A stretch of 64,000 nt of DNA from Aspidapion aeneum (taxonomy: Eukaryota > Arthropoda > Insecta > Coleoptera > Brentidae). Location of the stretch: NCBI GenBank assembly GCA_963576565.1, contig OY755047.1, positions 7,224,931 through 7,288,930 on the forward strand. The letters are read 5' to 3'. This document shows, in pieces, positions 11,160-44,990 of the stretch (positions are counted from its first letter, which is position 1; the number at the start of each line of letters is the position of its first letter). The position numbers and the translations under genes are program-made. Below the pieces are notes generated by a model, which was not told the DNA's origin, did not search any database, and saw only the letters and a list, made by a program, of their open reading frames with translations.

Positions 11160-12727
11160 TCTTTTTTTTTTAATATTAAAAGTCTTATGAATTTCACAAT
11201 TGTTTTTTACTGTCGAAAACTATCTTCTAAAAATCACCGATTGATTCGCCTAAAAATAACCCGGGAAAAATTCTAAAATCATAAGGTTTTTCACATTTAC
11301 ACCTACTTTATGCTATTTTTCACGTATTCCCAGTGAAAGAAACACCCTGTATAATTTGTTTTTGATACATTTTGATATTTGTTGTAATAAACTCTTTATG
11401 GAGTGTAATAGGCAGCCAAAATTCGAACTACGGCCGAAAAATTTTTATTTAAAATTTATTAAAAATCTTATGAAGTTAAGCATAGTTTTTTAATAAATAA
11501 TAATTACGAAATATAATCATACTTGCCTGTATAAATTGTATATTTTCCTAAAACCAAAACTATCGAAAACTATCTCCTAAAAATCACCGATTGATTTCCC
11601 TAAAAATAACCCGGGAAAAATTCTAAGATCATAAGGTTTTTCACATTTACACCTAGTTTATGCTATTTTTCACGTATTCCCAGTGAAAGAAACACCCTGT
11701 ATAATTTGTTTTTGATACATTTTGATATTTGTTGTAATAAACTCTTTATGGAGTGTAATAGGCAGCCAAAATGCGAACTACGGCCGAAAAAGTTTTATTT
11801 AAAATTTATTAAAAATCTTATGAAGTTAAGAATAGTTTTTTAATAAATAATAATTACGAAATATAATCATACTTGCCTTTATAAATTGTATATTTTCCTA
11901 AAACCAAAACTATCGAAAACTATCTCCTAAAAATCACCGATTGATTTCCCTAAAAATAACCCGGGAAAAATTCTAAGATCATAAGGTTTTTCACATTTAC
12001 ACCTAGTTTATGCTATTTTTCACGTATTCCCAGTGAAAGAAACACCCTGTATAATTTGTTTTTGATACATTTTGATATTTGTTGTAATAAACTCTTTATG
12101 GAGTGTAATAGGCAGCCAAAATGCGAACTACGGCCGAAAAAGTTTTATTTAAAATTTATTAAAAATCTTATGAAGTTAAGAATAGTTTTTTAATAAATAA
12201 TAATTACGAAATATACTTGCCTATATACTTGCCTATATAAATTGTATATTTTCCTAAAACCAAAACTATCGAAAACTATCTCCTAAAAATCACCCACCGA
12301 ATTGCCTAAAAATCGCCCTGGAAAAGTACTGAAATTATATGGTTTTTCACATTTTTACCTATTTTTTGCGATTTTTCATTTATTCCGAGTTAAAAAAACA
12401 CCCTGTATAATTTTTTTTAATACATTTTGATACCTGTTGAAATAAACTCTTAATCAGGTGCAATAAGCAGCCAAAATTCGAACTATGCCAGAAAATCTTT
12501 TATTTAAAATTTATTAAAAATCTTATGAATTTTTTAATAAATAAAATAATTACGAAATATAATCATACTTGCCTTTATAAATTGTATATTTTTCTAAAAC
12601 CAAAACTATCGAAAACTATCTCCTAAAAATCACGGATTGAATTGCCTAAAAATCACCTCGGAAAAATTCTAAAATCATATGGTTTTTCACATTTTCACCT
12701 ACTGTATGCGATTTTTCACGTATTCTC
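11160..12727. repeat. Tandem array of about 350-bp units (about 4.3 copies)
   Basis: The landmark AACACCCTGTATAATTTG occurs at 11341, 11691 and 12041, exactly 350 bp apart, and a diverged copy at 12397. Copies 2 and 3 are nearly identical, the outer ones diverged, as expected of unequal exchange. Each unit also holds CCTAAAAATAACCCGGGAAA and GGCAGCCAAAA. Every monomer contains one mobile-element terminus. Confidence 0.85.
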
Positions 12728-12988
12728 AGTAAAGTAAAGGGCTTGTTGCGAATTGGAGTTTGAAATATCGATTCAGACGCAACTCCCTGCGTCACTGGGG
12801 AACTTCTGAAGTTGGCCTCGAGACCAGGCAACTCAGTTTCTATTTTTAACCGACTTTCTGTATACAGAGTAATCCAAATTCCGCACTTTTGGGGGGCGAA
12901 GGTAAAGGGTTTCCCAAATTTGATGGTTTTGTCGGTTTTCTGGTTCATTTCTAGGGGCGATCCAAAAAAACTGCCCTTTACTTTTACT
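12728..12988. mobile_element. Small TIR element (261 bp)
   Basis: AGTAAAGTAAAGGGC at the left is repeated inverted as GCCCTTTACTTTTACT at the right. It interrupts or caps the last monomer of the 350-bp array. No coding region is recognised; open frames on both strands here overlap and look spurious. Confidence 0.55.
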
Positions 12989-25100: not shown

Positions 25101-28100
25101 GGCGTCTTCCAAAGGTCTGTTACACCTGCATTTTCTGTCACCTGATTTTCTTTGCCCATTGGACTTAGTTGTTTGTCCAAGTTAGGTGGAAGAATTTTTT
25201 TGTTGTATTTCGCAGCTGTTTCCAATATTTGTATAACTTGTTTGGTTTTACCCAAAGCTAGGAGCCATCTGGGGGATTCTGGAATCAACCACCTGCAAAA
25301 TAAAATGTTAGCAAGAGTTAGGTTTACTGCAGTAAAGTGCCAGATCAACAACTAGCTCCTAGAGATTTTGCAAAAGTTTGTAGGTCCTAAATTCTGAGGG
25401 CTCTGGATTTTTTTGTTGTATTTTGCGACTGTTTCCAATATTTGTATAACTTGCTTGGTTTTACCCAAAGCTAGGAGCCATCTGGGGGATTCAGGGATTA
25501 ACCACCTGCAAAATAAAATGTTAGCAAGAGTTAGGTTAACTGCAGTATAGTGACAGATCAACAACTAGCTCCTACAGATTTTGCAAAAATTTATAGGTCC
25601 TAAATTCTGAGGGCTCTGAATTTTTTTGTTGTATTTTGCGGCTGTTTCCAATATTTGTATATCTTGCTTGGTTTTACCCAAAGCTAGGAGCCATCTGGGG
25701 GATTCAGGGATTAACCACCTGCAAAATAAAATGTTAGCAAGAGTTAGGTTAACTGCAGTATAGTGACAGATCAACAACTAGCTCCTACAGATTTTGCAAA
25801 AATTTATAGGTCCTAAATTCTGAGGGCTCTGAATTTTTTTGTTGTATTTTGCGGCTGTTTCCAATATTTGTATAACTTGCTTGGTTTTACCCAAAGCTAG
25901 GAGCCATCTGGGGGATTCAGGGATTAACCACCTGCAAAATAAAATGTTAGCAAGAGTTAGGTTAACTGCAGTAAAGTGACAGATCAACAACTAGCTCCTA
26001 GAGATTTTGCAAAAGTTTGTAGGTCCTAAATTCTGAGGGCTCTCAAAGACTGGATACCCAAGGAGACATGGACTTACCATAAGCCCAAAAACAGGAATCC
26101 AGGTAAACTAATGGCCAATTGAAACTGCCTCCAATTGGTCAGCAAATAGCCAAGTCCGGCGATCATGCAGTACCCCACTGACACCGGAAATAGATAGGAT
26201 ATCCCCGCTATGGTACGCCAGTTGCCTCCTACTAGTTCTATTGAGAGGATGAACCCGCTGAAGACCACTGAGACTGAGATGAAACCCAACATACATCTCA
26301 GAACCACGTACATCTCGAACCAAGGTGCCAAGGCTATGCTACTTCCTGAAATCAAAATAGAAAAAATTGTTCTAGCCTTGGTGTGGATGTCTATTATTTT
26401 TTTGAGTTGGCCTATGTTTGAGACATAGATAAATACTAAACGTTACATAACTAAAATAATTTCAAAAAGTGTCAATTTCTTTTTCCATCAAACCGTGACT
26501 TTTTCGTTGACACTAAGCTCGCACTTTTGGTACCCTTATCGACAGAGGGAGACAAAATATAAAAAAAAATTATCAAAGTTTCAAATTAAGAACCTATTTT
26601 ACAATATCTAACACTTGTTCTATTTAAACACTAAATTATCTAAGTTTCTATCTAGATTTCCTGAACTAAACGTCAATTATGCCATAGATAAATACCAAAA
26701 TTAGACAAAAAACTTACCAAGTGTACTTTGAATAAATATAGACGCGAAAAGCGTCTTTTTTCTTCCATATTTGTCCGAAATAATTCCACAGACAAGGCCG
26801 CCTAGGGCCACTCCTGCCAGAAACATCATTTCTGATAAGTTTATGAGACCTTGTCTATCACAGAGTAAGTTGAATTCTGAGATGATGGTTTCCCCTAAAA
26901 ATAAAGGAAAAACATGACACATTAACACTTGATTTAAAATTATATAAATGTATACTACTATGTCGGTTTAGAACATTTTTCTACGTTGTCCGACGCCTAT
27001 TCTCCACCTCATTCGATCCTGAGAATCATCTTCTGTCAGGTTTTTTTGACTCATTGATCTTTGGATTTTTCTGCTTTTCTGCGCCCTATTTGTTGTCATT
27101 CTAGGTCCTGCTTTGGTAATCTTTCGTCGTTCATCCATTGTACATGGCCGTACCATATCAGTTGTCTTTTAGTGATGTCATCCGTTTACACCTCGATTCC
27201 CATTCTTTTGTTTATGATCTTATTTCTTATGTGATCTGTTCTAGATATTCTCATTGATCTTCTTATTGCATCCATTTCGACACTTTCCATTTTTGTTTTG
27301 TATTTTTCTGTTACGCGACAAGTTTCTATTCCATACAACAGCGTGCTTTTCACCATAGTTTCATATATGTTAAATTTTACATTATTTTTTATGTCTCTGC
27401 TCCATAAAATACTGTTAAGTCATCCAATAACCTTTTTTGCTTTTACTATTCTTTTTTCCAGTTCAGAGATATTGTTTGTTCATTGTCTAGTTCTACCTAA
27501 CTGGATTCGTTTTCAATACATAAGTACTGTGTCTTGTTCACGTTCACTGTTAATTAAGTTAAGATTGACACTTGATTTTAAAATGTATAAAAGTATAATA
27601 TATTTATATTTTTCAAAATCCTTTTTACATACCCCCCTGTAAAAACTCCCAAGCTTCGCATCTAATTCGGCTCAAATTTGCTGTGTTTTCGCAAAGACCC
27701 ACTTGGCTCCGGTTATCTGATAACACATCTAGAATCGTACAGAATTCTTTTTCTGTTTGACCTGTACAGTTTTTCCAAAGAACCTGAAAGAACAAAAAGA
27801 TTTTGCGTATTATTAGTTGCCTTGTAGAAATAAAATTTCGGACTTCCATTGTCTTTATTTATTTTAAACACGACGTTTCGGTTAGTAAGTACCTCTAACC
27901 GTTTTCAAACTAATCTTCCATTGTACATTTGATTGTTGGTCGAATACCGTTCAGATAGTGTGAAAAAGTCTGCAGTTCGTCATCATTTTCTGGCCATATA
28001 ATAAATGTGTCATCCATGTATAGTAGCCATAGTTTTGGCTTAACTCTTGCTGTGTTGATCGCATGGTCCTCGAACCACTCCATGTAGATGTTTGCTACCA

Positions 28101-40029: not shown

Positions 40030-40450
40030 GAGGTTAAGCTTTCAAGCTACCCACGGAAAAATATAAGGGAAACAAAAAACTCCTTTTTGCTCGATTAGCC
40101 ATGAAACTTGTTTGATTTTTAAATTCACGGGTATGAAATTTCACGTTTGTTAGTATTATTTGGCTTAAAAATTCCGTTGATTGACGCTCACTGTCTTGAT
40201 GACGGGTAAAAATGCAAAATGCGTTGATCCGGCCTGAAAAGACAAAGAGCTGTCGTAGGTCACGGACTATAGTTGTTTTCTTTTATTTGCATTCGATCTT
40301 TTCATTGATCGATATTGTATAGCAGTGTTTTCCCTGCTTTTGGTTTTTTGTTTCTCTCGTATCTCGGTAGATGGCGCCTCTTGCTATAGTTCGCTCACTA
40401 ATTACATTTAATTAGAGACAAAACCGTCTGATTAACTTCGCAAGATTTGT

Positions 40451-40519
40451 CACTTGACCAGCAGTGTTCTGAGGAGTCCCATAAGGACGAAACGGTTAAC
40501 TGTCAACACTTATTAGGTG
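40451..40519 (+). ncRNA. Type I hammerhead ribozyme 1
   Basis: Core CTGAGGA at 40469-40475, stem II GTCC/GGAC (40476-40479 with 40485-40488), GAAA at 40489-40492, a short stem III with a TTAA loop (40492-40503), then the cleavage-site C at 40504. Stem I pairs AGTGTT (40463-40468) with AACACT (40505-40510) and extends through an internal loop to CACTT / AGGTG (40451-40455 with 40515-40519). All invariant hammerhead positions are present. The short stem III suggests activity as a dimer. Confidence 0.87.
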
Positions 40520-40963
40520 TCCATTAGATCTTGGACCCCCGTGAGGTTAAGCTTTCAAGCTACCCACGGAAAAATATAAGGGAAACAAAAAACTCATTTT
40601 TGCCCGATTAGCCATGAAACTTGTTTGATTTTTAAATTCACGGGTATGAAATTTCACGTTTGTTAGTATTGTTTGGCTTAAAAATTCCGTTGATTGACGT
40701 TCACTGTCTTGATGACGGGTAAAAATGCAAAATGCGTTGATCCGGCCTGAAAAGACAAAGAGCTGTCGTAGGTCACGGACTATAGTTGTTTTCTTTTATT
40801 TGCATTCGATCTTTTCATTGATCGATATTGTATAGCAGTGTTTTCCCTGCTTTTGGTTTTTTGTTTCTCTCGTATCTCGGTAGATGGCGCCTCTTGCTAT
40901 AGTTCGCTCACTAATTACATTTAATTAGAGACAAAACCGTCTGATTAACTTCGCAAGATTTGT

Positions 40964-41032
40964 CACTTGACCAGCAGTGTTCTGAGGAGTCCCATAAGGA
41001 CGAAACGGTTAACTGTCAACACTTATTAGGTG
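40964..41032 (+). ncRNA. Type I hammerhead ribozyme 2
   Basis: Identical to ribozyme 1, shifted by exactly 513 bp: core CTGAGGA at 40982-40988, GAAA at 41002-41005, predicted cleavage after C at 41017. Cleavage at both sites would release a 513-nt linear monomer. Confidence 0.87.
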
Positions 41033-41147
41033 TCCATTAGATCTTGTACCCCCGTGAGGTTAAGCTTTTAAGCTACTCACGGAGAAATATAAGGGAAACA
41101 AAAAAACTCCTTTTTGCCCGATTAGCCATGAAACTTGTTTGATTTAT

Positions 41148-43080: not shown

Positions 43081-44990
43081 AAAAAATTACTATTAAAAAA
43101 CTTAACTTTTATTTATTTTTAAATATGAATCGTTTTTTATTTTGCCATTTTGAAGATGTACTATGTTATATACACACATACCACAAAAAGAATATACTAG
43201 ATGATTATTTTTAAACTTTTGTTGTAATAAATAATAATCATGTAATTGATCGCCCATACAATCCACTAGATGTGTTAATTAACAATTATTTAACAATTAG
43301 CTTGAATTAGAATTTTTTACTATTTTATTTTTTTTTTAACAAATTTTTAAAAATACTTGAGTGGTCCTAAACATAACTGACCACAATTTGTATTATGTTT
43401 TCTTTAAATACTACATTTTAAAAAAGTCACTTTTATTTTTTGAATCACCTATTAACACCTCTTTTCTTAATTTCCCAAAAAAAAACAGTACAGTAACACA
43501 ATTTAGTCATTGGTCAAATTTTTGTTAACAGTATATTACACAAAAAGTTAATCATACACTCACGAAAAAATTCCAGTACTTTTTTACTACAATGTTGCAA
43601 TAATATTGGTATTTTTTTAAAAAATCGAAAAAGTATGTATTTATACTTAGTTTTTTGTTTTGCTTTATGAATTATCAAACACCGTGCCTAAATTACCTAA
43701 TTTTTAGAAATGTTTTGATATATGTTTTAACAATTAGCTTGTATTAGGGTTTTTTAATATCGAATTTTTTATTTATTATTTTTTAAAATACTTAATTGGT
43801 CCTAAACGTAACTGACCACAATTTGTGTTATGTTTTCTTTAAATACTACATTTTTGAAGTCACTTTTATTTTTTGTCACCTATTAACACCTCTTTTCTTA
43901 ATTTCCAAAAAAAATAGTACAGTAACACAATTTAGTCATTAGTAAAATTTTTTTAACAGTATGTTACCTAAAAAGTTAATCACACAATCACGAAAAAATT
44001 CTAGAACTTTCTTACTACAACGTTGCAATAATATTGGTATTTTTTTTTTAATCGAAAAAATATGTATTTTTACATAACTTTTTGGTTTGCTTTATGGATT
44101 GTCAAAAAAACGTGCCTAGATCCTAATTTTTAGTAATGTTTTGATAAATTTTTTAACAATTGGAATTTTTTATTATCGAATTTTTATTTTTTTTTAAACA
44201 AATTTTGAAAAATACTTGGCCGTTTCTTAACGTAACTGACCACAATTTGTCTTATTTTTTGTTTAAATACTTCATTTAAAAAAGTCACTCTTATTTTTTG
44301 AATCACCTATTAACACCTCTTTTCTTAATTTCCCAAAAAAAAAAACAGTACAGTAACACAATTTAGTCATTGGTCAAATTTTTGTTAACAGTATGTTACA
44401 CCAAGAATTAATCACACACTCACGAAAAAATTCCAGTACTTCCTTACAACTATGTTGCAATAATATTGGTTTTTTTTAACCGAAAAAATATGTATTTATA
44501 CGTAGTTTTTTGGGTTTACTTTATGGATTATCAAAAAACGTGCCGAGTTCACTAAATTTTTAGTAATGTTTTGATATATTTTTTAACAATTATCTTAAAT
44601 TAGAGTTTTTTATTATCGAATTTTTTATTTATATTTTTTTAACGAATTTTTAAAAATACTTGACTGGTCCTAAACGAACTGACCACAATTTGTACTATGT
44701 TTTCTTTAAATACTATATTTTAAAAAAGTCACTTTTATTTTTTGAATCACCTATTAACACCTCTTTTCTTAATTTCCCAAAAAACAGTACAGTAACACAA
44801 TTTAGTCATTAGAAATTTTTTTTTAACAGTATGTTACACAAAAAGTTAATCATACACTCACGAAAAAATTCCAGTACTTTGTTGCTACAATGTTGCAATA
44901 ATATTGGTATTTTTTTAAAAAATTGAAAAAATATGTATTTATACGTAGTTTTTTGGGTTTGCTTTATGGATTATGTACTATTAGGGACCA
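43081..44990. repeat. Tandem array of about 430-440-bp units (about 4.4 copies)
   Basis: ATTAACACCTCTTTTCTTAA recurs near 43451, 43881, 44309 and 44751. Other landmarks per unit are CAGTACAGTAACACAATTTA, CACGAAAAAATTC and ACTGACCACAATTTGT. Units are diverged by small indels, so the array is older than the 350-bp one. Each unit also contains a GTGCCTAGxTTxCCTAA variant. Confidence 0.8.

What the first reader, a model, noticed from the sequence alone, without database searches (positions are those of the whole stretch)
40030..41147. Tandem 513-bp repeat in which every full monomer carries an apparently intact type I hammerhead ribozyme
Seen: two units exactly 513 bp apart, each with CTGAGGA, GTCC/GGAC, GAAA, a short TTAA-capped stem III, C before the cleavage point and a 6-bp stem I (AGTGTT/AACACT) plus outer pairing. 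All invariant core bases are present and the spacing is correct. Known: animal retrozymes are tandem repeats that self-cleave into monomers and circularise; Penelope-like terminal repeats carry similar minimal hammerheads. Inference: transcription through this array would release 513-nt RNAs. The monomer lacks an open frame and no Penelope RT is next to it, so it may be an undescribed insect retrozyme.
Basis: partly seen in the sequence, partly recalled or inferred. Interest (0 to 1): 0.9.

Follow-up and report, generated by a model that had tools for sequence, protein, structure and literature searches.

The report
Beetle retrozyme bearing Penelope insertion marks
In what is likely a beetle genome, a 513-base repeat with a hammerhead motif (predicted to let its RNA cut itself) occurs at many places, and those of the examined insertions that have a target-site duplication nearly always show the same unusual pair of ends as a Penelope-type retrotransposon in that genome, so it likely spreads as a small RNA circle copied by Penelope-type enzymes, a link that the papers seen here give only as a proposal.

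Summary
In detail: window 40030-41145 is 475 + 513 + 128 bp of one 513-bp unit with two identical type I hammerheads (cleavage predicted after C40504 and C41017). Rfam Hammerhead_1 matches both at 24.7 bits, below its cut-off of 34. The genome holds 11,093 exact matches to the core pattern (reversed control 0). Among 57 insertions examined, 36 have two arms head-to-head. Arms end mainly at two sites about 30 nt apart (S, 124-137; T, 154-170 nt past cleavage). Of 28 insertions with an 11-16 bp target duplication, 26 have one S arm and one T arm. A Penelope-like element (RT, GIY-YIG) of the same genome obeys the same rule in 7 of 7 insertions examined (duplication 12-14 bp). Units within an insertion look copied from one template, which favours a circle without proving it. 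Best reading: a retrozyme inserted by Penelope-type target-primed reverse transcription on both target strands. The window copy is one-armed, 5'-truncated and lacks a duplication. RNA cleavage, circles and the serving enzyme are untested; the Penelope family found shares no detectable sequence with the unit, and a search for other families did not complete.

The parts
40030..41145 (+). whole insertion: one-armed array, 5'-truncated at monomer position 39, 3' end at the S site (monomer position about 127)
   Evidence: blastn of the monomer; boundaries and no target duplication (longest shared flank word 6)
40030..40504 (+). first, 5'-truncated unit (monomer positions 39-513)
   Evidence: 4 differences to the next unit
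40505..41017 (+). complete 513-nt monomer from predicted cleavage site to predicted cleavage site; predicted RNA circle
   Evidence: 4 differences to the consensus of 146 monomers
41018..41145 (+). 3' partial unit (monomer positions 1-127), ending at the S site
40463..40510 (+). type I hammerhead ribozyme 1, predicted cleavage after C40504
   Evidence: RF00163 24.7 bits; letters of each part
40976..41023 (+). type I hammerhead ribozyme 2, predicted cleavage after C41017
   Evidence: RF00163 24.7 bits; letters of each part
40628..40641 (+). S site inside the complete monomer (positions 124-137), where one class of arms ends; predicted RT start
   Evidence: arm ends
40658..40670 (+). T site inside the complete monomer (positions 154-166), where the other class of arms ends; predicted second RT start
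   Evidence: arm ends (up to 170, where flank letters also match)

Best explanation
The array is one copy of a likely retrozyme that is predicted to be cut out of its transcript by its hammerhead, likely closes into a 513-nt RNA circle, and would then be reverse-transcribed into the genome by a Penelope-type enzyme that primes on both strands of a staggered target cut. Steps: (1) an array is transcribed (inferred); (2) two successive hammerheads cut a 513-nt RNA free and it is closed into a circle (predicted); (3) a Penelope-type RT/GIY-YIG protein cuts the target with a stagger of about 12 bp (the duplications are shown, the enzyme is inferred); (4) one target end primes at site S and the other at site T, about 30 nt further downstream (the end positions are shown, the priming is inferred); (5) the RT may run round the circle several times, giving head-to-tail units within an arm (one-template origin is supported statistically, the circle is inferred); (6) the two arms are joined 5' end to 5' end with little or no extra sequence (shown). 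One-armed copies such as the window's would be incomplete versions.
For: Ribozyme; 131 of 146 complete monomers from 35 loci keep CTGANGA/GAAA/UH. Copy number: 11,093 core matches, reversed control 0. Anatomy, high-scoring sample: 37 recent insertions (40 clusters, less two old fragments, the two pieces of L018 merged; duplicate locus L020 dropped beforehand): 22 two-armed; all 16 with an exact flank repeat of 11-13 bp have one S end (124-137) and one T end (154-166); L018 fits by eye. Random pairings of flanks reach 11 bp or more in 11 of 3000. Anatomy, first 20 clusters of core matches in genome order: 14 two-armed; 12 have a repeat of 11-16 bp, 10 of them S+T; random pairings 3 of 2000. Orientation among the first 100 core matches: 13 head-to-head adjacencies, 1 tail-to-tail. 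Penelope comparison: RT (PF00078) and GIY-YIG (PF01541, 22.7 bits against a cut-off of 22.6) pieces at L010; that copy and six two-armed copies chosen all have one S-type and one T-type end, 28-34 nt apart where the script placed both, with duplications of 12-14 bp: 7 of 7, one of them (L054/L055) placed by eye. Published Penelope biochemistry: RT starts at two adjacent internal RNA sites, both target strands are cut and extended, and the 30-40 bp optional tail lies between the two starts (PMC11167929, parts 1-2 of 4); head-to-head pLTRs with a 31-bp tail on one of them and duplications of 8-10 bp in a rotifer (PMC3846280, passages). One template: mean distance within loci 6.2 against 9.8 between, 0 of 2000 permutations as low; in 6 of 11 loci with four or more complete units no informative site at all; locus-unique variants in 34 loci: 13 in all units, 233 in one, 20 in some.
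Against: No RNA data. The Rfam score is below the curated cut-off, and the lowest-energy folds bury the ribozyme. The L010-type Penelope element shares no significant sequence with the unit (best E 0.96; a similar T-end word is reached by 80 of 2000 shuffles), so the serving enzyme is not identified. Five of 22 two-armed insertions lack a duplication and do not have one S and one T end (L016b 126/132, L023 161/163, L024 132/74, L037 132/130, L038 369/128). In the genome-order set L067 has a duplication with ends at 126 and 65, L076 a duplication with one arm, and L058, L060 and L072 are two-armed without one. The circle test is limited: only 12 of the 34 loci have complete units on both arms, and of the 20 partly shared variants only the 6 of L023 could have shown up in both arms (none did). 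L021, L023 and L028b show alternating unit types, and in L028b five units share a changed core base (GAAA to AAAA), so some templates were dimeric, were not processed by a normal hammerhead, or the arrays were rearranged later. Ribozyme constraint is weakly supported: 1 of 82 template-level differences but only 24 distinct sites, 1 of them in the ribozyme, against about 2.3 expected by length. In vitro, Penelope hammerhead mutants still insert, and no difference in start site between the two strands was seen (PMC11167929).
Confidence: 0.74

Rival explanations
1. The arrays come from linear multimeric transcripts of older arrays, reverse-transcribed by a Penelope-type enzyme; the hammerhead is not needed and no circle is involved.
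For: In vitro, Penelope hammerhead mutants still insert and unprocessed RNA was the main substrate (PMC11167929). L028b carries five units with a changed core base, and L021, L023 and L028b have mixed unit types.
Against: In L011, L013, L017, L018, L019 and L030 no site is informative among 5-9 units, against means of 3.4-7.4 for random units from different loci (that control mixes subfamilies and so overstates the contrast; the other five loci tested had 1-12 informative sites). 13 locus-unique variants are in every unit of their locus (10 loci, three of them with only two units); in the 12 loci with complete units on both arms, 4 variants are in all units, 127 in one and 6 (all L023) in some, none of the 6 in both arms (counted).
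Confidence: 0.2
2. The 513-bp unit is the pseudo-LTR of an autonomous Penelope-like element whose coding copies were missed.
For: Same end signature as Penelope insertions. The DNA search scored only 40 of 2419 candidates, and the search for other Penelope families with the RT protein did not complete.
Against: Arms meet directly in 36 of 36 two-armed insertions. The Penelope family found has a different terminal repeat and a minimal hammerhead without the TTAA-capped stem III.
Confidence: 0.08
3. An ordinary satellite DNA spread by unequal crossing over, with a hammerhead that does nothing.
For: Head-to-tail units of constant length in some places; hints of local homogenisation in L021. A cricket hammerhead repeat of about 500 bp has been described as satellite DNA (PMC2837043).
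Against: Dispersed insertions with 11-16 bp target duplications, two preferred 3' ends and inverted arms are not products of unequal crossing over.
Confidence: 0.03
4. The family is mobilised by a non-LTR retrotransposon (LINE) rather than a Penelope-type enzyme.
For: LINEs are named beside Penelope elements as possible drivers (PMC7229834), and RT fragments of LINE type are frequent in the window's ORF list (my reading of the translations).
Against: The 3' ends show no poly(A) by eye, and the two-site, two-arm rule equals that of the Penelope family in the same genome in 7 of 7 copies and the published Penelope tail. No LINE family was tested for the same ends.
Confidence: 0.04

Closest known systems
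Metazoan non-LTR retrozymes (Cervera and de la Pena 2020, PMC7229834; parts 2-4 of 6 read)
   Same: Type I hammerhead per unit, no ORF, GC below 50%, dimers to longer arrays, thousands of copies, target duplications longer than 4 bp, Penelope elements in the same genome.
   Different: 513 nt, against repeats of 150-450 bp and circles of about 170-400 nt reported for animals; the parts I read describe no head-to-head arms, no S/T ends and no tail, and leave the mobilising enzyme as a proposal.
Penelope-like elements, Penelope/Poseidon type (PMC11167929 parts 1-2 of 4 read; PMC3846280 passages)
   Same: Head-to-head arms, two 3' end classes about 30-40 nt apart with the tail on one arm, short target duplications, a type I hammerhead upstream of the ends.
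   Different: No RT/GIY-YIG frame in the 513-bp unit; a hammerhead with a TTAA-capped stem III; the whole 513 nt is the repeating unit, not a terminal repeat around an ORF.
pDo500 hammerhead satellite of Dolichopoda cave crickets (PMC2837043, Background section and passages read)
   Same: Insect repeat of roughly 500 bp with a hammerhead that processes multimeric transcripts.
   Different: Treated there as satellite DNA; sequences were not compared here; no insertion anatomy in what I read.
Plant LTR retrozymes (PMC7761336 passages)
   Same: Non-coding elements moving through hammerhead-made circles.
   Different: Those have LTRs with PBS and polypurine tract, 4-bp duplications, likely Gypsy machinery, and type III hammerheads.

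Membership tests
Metazoan non-LTR retrozyme | type I hammerhead in the units of a short tandem repeat | tested here: met
   131 of 146 complete monomers keep the core; Rfam score below the curated cut-off
Metazoan non-LTR retrozyme | no coding capacity | tested here: met
   longest ORF wholly inside the window array 36 aa
Metazoan non-LTR retrozyme | GC below 50%, target duplications longer than 4 bp when present | tested here: met
   GC 39%; duplications of 11-13 bp in 16 of 37 insertions and 11-16 bp in 12 of 20; none at the window copy
Metazoan non-LTR retrozyme | animal units of 150-450 bp (circles about 170-400 nt) | tested here: not met
   513 nt. The paper gives this as the observed range; I treat it as descriptive and file the family as a larger variant
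Metazoan non-LTR retrozyme | expressed as linear and circular RNA | not testable with these tools
   no RNA data
Metazoan non-LTR retrozyme | no LTR, primer binding site or polypurine tract | not tested
   no dedicated search was made
Metazoan non-LTR retrozyme | Penelope-like elements in the same genome | tested here: met
   RT and GIY-YIG pieces in L010; 86 matches with 40 of 1556 candidates scored
Penelope-like element | ORF with RT and GIY-YIG endonuclease | tested here: not met
   no such ORF in the unit; arms meet directly in 36 of 36 two-armed insertions
Penelope-like element | inverted arms, two 3' end sites with a 30-40 nt tail on one arm, short target duplication | tested here: met
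   26 of 28 insertions with a duplication; tail 24-36 nt, mean 29.6, in the 16. Not at the one-armed window copy
pDo500 satellite family | sequence identity with pDo500 | not tested
   no pDo500 sequence was at hand

The most novel reading that the evidence does not exclude
Retrozymes of this kind are circular-RNA parasites of Penelope elements, inserted by a two-sided reaction in which the two ends of one staggered cut each prime on a different, fixed site of the same small RNA circle, run round it, and are joined head-to-head; the long-known Penelope tail on one inverted end would then be the footprint of a division of labour between two RT subunits rather than of self-priming.
Probability: 0.5. 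Interest if true: 0.85.

Novelty: new variant of a known kind. Interest (0 to 1): 0.72.

Why it matters
Which enzyme moves animal retrozymes is given as a proposal (LINEs or Penelope elements) in the two 2020 papers and the 2024 review that I read in part. This family offers a sharp genomic test that can be repeated in any genome: do retrozyme insertions show the Penelope two-site, two-arm signature? Here they do. If true it also gives thousands of natural insertion records from which the priming of the two target strands can be read, and a substrate (a 513-nt circle with two mapped end sites) for testing it in vitro.

Tried and rejected
Satellite DNA and LINE mobilisation were considered and are disfavoured (see rivals). 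I looked for sequence similarity between the unit and the L010-type Penelope element and found none beyond chance. I first read the alternating unit types of L021, L023 and L028b as dimer circles; neighbours in L021 share variants at the same site, so later exchange is as likely, and I make no claim from them. I checked whether the ribozyme is more conserved in templates than after insertion; the direction fits but distinct sites are too few. The control mixes subfamilies. L039's right end coincides with the end of the fetched stretch, so its end position is not evidence. Target sites are AT-rich, but so is the window (GC 33%) and no control was run, so I make no claim from that. Species: LINE and transporter relatives point to a beetle (best gene match Rhamnusium bicolor, 63% identity), no closer name. 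Nothing was gained from Rfam at gathering thresholds or from PDB sequences for the RT.

Full report
What is there. The window lies in an unnamed 1.286-Gb genome at C10:7224931-7288930, likely a beetle by the relatives of its transporter and LINE proteins. Window 40030-41145 consists of three in-register pieces of one 513-bp unit. Both hammerheads are letter-for-letter the same and complete. Rfam finds them only below its curated cut-off. Cleavage is predicted after C40504 and C41017, so a transcript through the array would release one 513-nt RNA; this was not tested.

The family. A DNA search returned 136 matches with 40 of 2419 first-look candidates scored. The core pattern CTGANGAGTCCN{3,8}GGACGAAAC occurs 11,093 times (5,487 and 5,606 on the two strands; reversed control 0; only the first 100 places are listed). 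Older relatives exist: in L012:5953-7229 monomer positions 463-513 match at 90% and two other stretches at 71-73%; it keeps a hammerhead match (23.7 bits) and is split by other sequence. Complete recent monomers: 146 from 35 loci, of which 131 keep the core letters.

Insertion anatomy. I mapped arms in 37 recent insertions fetched because they scored high (analysed) and in the first 20 clusters of core matches in genome order on C1 (these are chosen for an intact core). In the first set 22 are two-armed: a minus-strand arm on the left and a plus-strand arm on the right, 5' ends meeting with -8 to +14 bp between them. Outer ends fall mainly at monomer positions 124-137 (S) or 154-166 (T). All 16 with an exact 11-13 bp flank repeat have one S and one T end; random flank pairs reach 11 bp in 11 of 3000. 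L018 also fits once its interruption is bridged by eye. The other five two-armed ones (L016b, L023, L024, L037, L038) have no duplication and break the rule. None of the 15 one-armed insertions, the window's included, has a shared flank word above 7; 10 end at S, 3 at T, 1 elsewhere (L016a), and L039 is cut by the fetched stretch. In the genome-order set 14 of 20 are two-armed, with -16 to +21 bp between arms; 12 have a repeat of 11-16 bp, 10 of them S+T (T up to 170, where flank letters also match), one with ends at 126 and 65 (L067), one single-armed (L076); L058, L060 and L072 are two-armed without a duplication; random pairs reach 11 bp in 3 of 2000. Among the first 100 core matches, 70 clusters, 13 adjacent opposite pairs are head-to-head and 1 tail-to-tail; 8 clusters have two or more hammerheads on one strand.

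The Penelope comparison. L010 contains a Penelope-like element with an RT piece (PF00078, E 5.3e-13) and a GIY-YIG piece (PF01541, 22.7 bits against a cut-off of 22.6); the 120 best of 3676 relatives of the RT piece include many insect proteins and an Anolis one. Its 3' terminal region carries a minimal hammerhead-like motif (read by eye); an inverted copy of that region forms the other end; a 14-bp duplication flanks it, and one end is 33 nt longer. Six more two-armed copies, picked because both arms were listed there, show one S-type and one T-type end and duplications of 12-14 bp: five by script (ends 29-34 nt apart), one (L054/L055) where the script's alignment stopped early and I placed the end and the 12-bp duplication by eye, the duplication being found again. 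This matches published findings: internal RT starts at two adjacent sites, both strands cut and extended, tail equal to the sequence between the starts (PMC11167929), and head-to-head pLTRs with a tail on one of them (PMC3846280, where self-priming was proposed). So the retrozyme's ends are of Penelope type. The unit and this Penelope family share no detectable sequence, so the enzyme that serves the retrozyme may be this family's or another's; my search for other families did not complete. One point in the published assay speaks against a strict division of labour: no difference in start site between strands was seen there.

Circle or linear template. Units in one insertion are closer to each other (6.2 differences) than to units elsewhere (9.8; 0 of 2000 permutations); opposite-arm pairs of one locus average 6.4 against 9.9, though L018 and, less so, L023 show little or no such closeness. 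In 34 loci with two or more complete units, variants unique to the locus were in all units 13 times (10 loci), in one unit 233 times and in some 20 times. A linear multimer would carry its unit differences into both arms; a monomer circle would not. But only 12 of these loci have complete units on both arms: there 4 variants are in all units, 127 in one, 6 in some (all in L023), none of the 6 in both arms. The other 14 partial cases lie in one-armed loci (L016a, L021, L028b, L031, L036). L028b's shared core change shows that a normal hammerhead was not always needed. I hold the circle as likely, not shown.

Constraint and fold. Substitutions private to one unit fall in the hammerhead in 24 of 254 cases, its share by length; template-level differences in 1 of 82, but over only 24 distinct sites. 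The circular fold of 513 nt is -132.1 kcal/mol, z -2.9 against 60 shuffles, with a paired fraction (0.60) no higher than the shuffles' (0.61) and a pairing that competes with the hammerhead. A Penelope hammerhead that cleaves only when protein is added has been reported (PMC11167929).

Literature scope. Read: PMC7229834 parts 2-4 of 6; PMC11167929 parts 1-2 of 4; passages of PMC3846280, PMC7761336 and PMC11722881; Background and passages of PMC2837043; other papers only as search listings. In these I found the Penelope link for animal retrozymes stated as a proposal and met no description of two-arm, two-site retrozyme insertions; that covers only open-licence papers, those nine searches and the parts read.

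Noticed in passing
window 25192-26043: A 213-bp unit in four tandem copies includes an exon-like piece (WLIPESPRWLLALGKTKQV...) of a major-facilitator transporter-like gene on the minus strand.
   Followed up: no
window 5012, 9928, 16389, 59840, 60854: Five copies of a 114-120 bp x 3 tandem repeat, each within about 500 bp of a CTGT/GTCT/ACAG run, suggesting one module.
   Followed up: no
window 11209-12734 and 43285-44974: Two further tandem arrays, 350 bp x 4.4 and 428 bp x 3.9, not examined.
   Followed up: no
L010:3493-7560: A retrozyme insertion and a Penelope insertion, about 600 bp apart, both appear to sit inside one Gypsy-type element (my reading of the ORFs).
   Followed up: partly
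L027:3089-5427: The right flank of this retrozyme insertion reads, by eye in one frame of the letters, like an RT of a second Penelope family; not searched.
   Followed up: no
L015 and L020: Insertions on C4 and C78 share flanks, so C78 is probably an allelic or duplicated contig.
   Followed up: partly
L028:2966-5528: Five retrozyme units share a changed hammerhead core base and alternate in length 513/512.
   Followed up: partly
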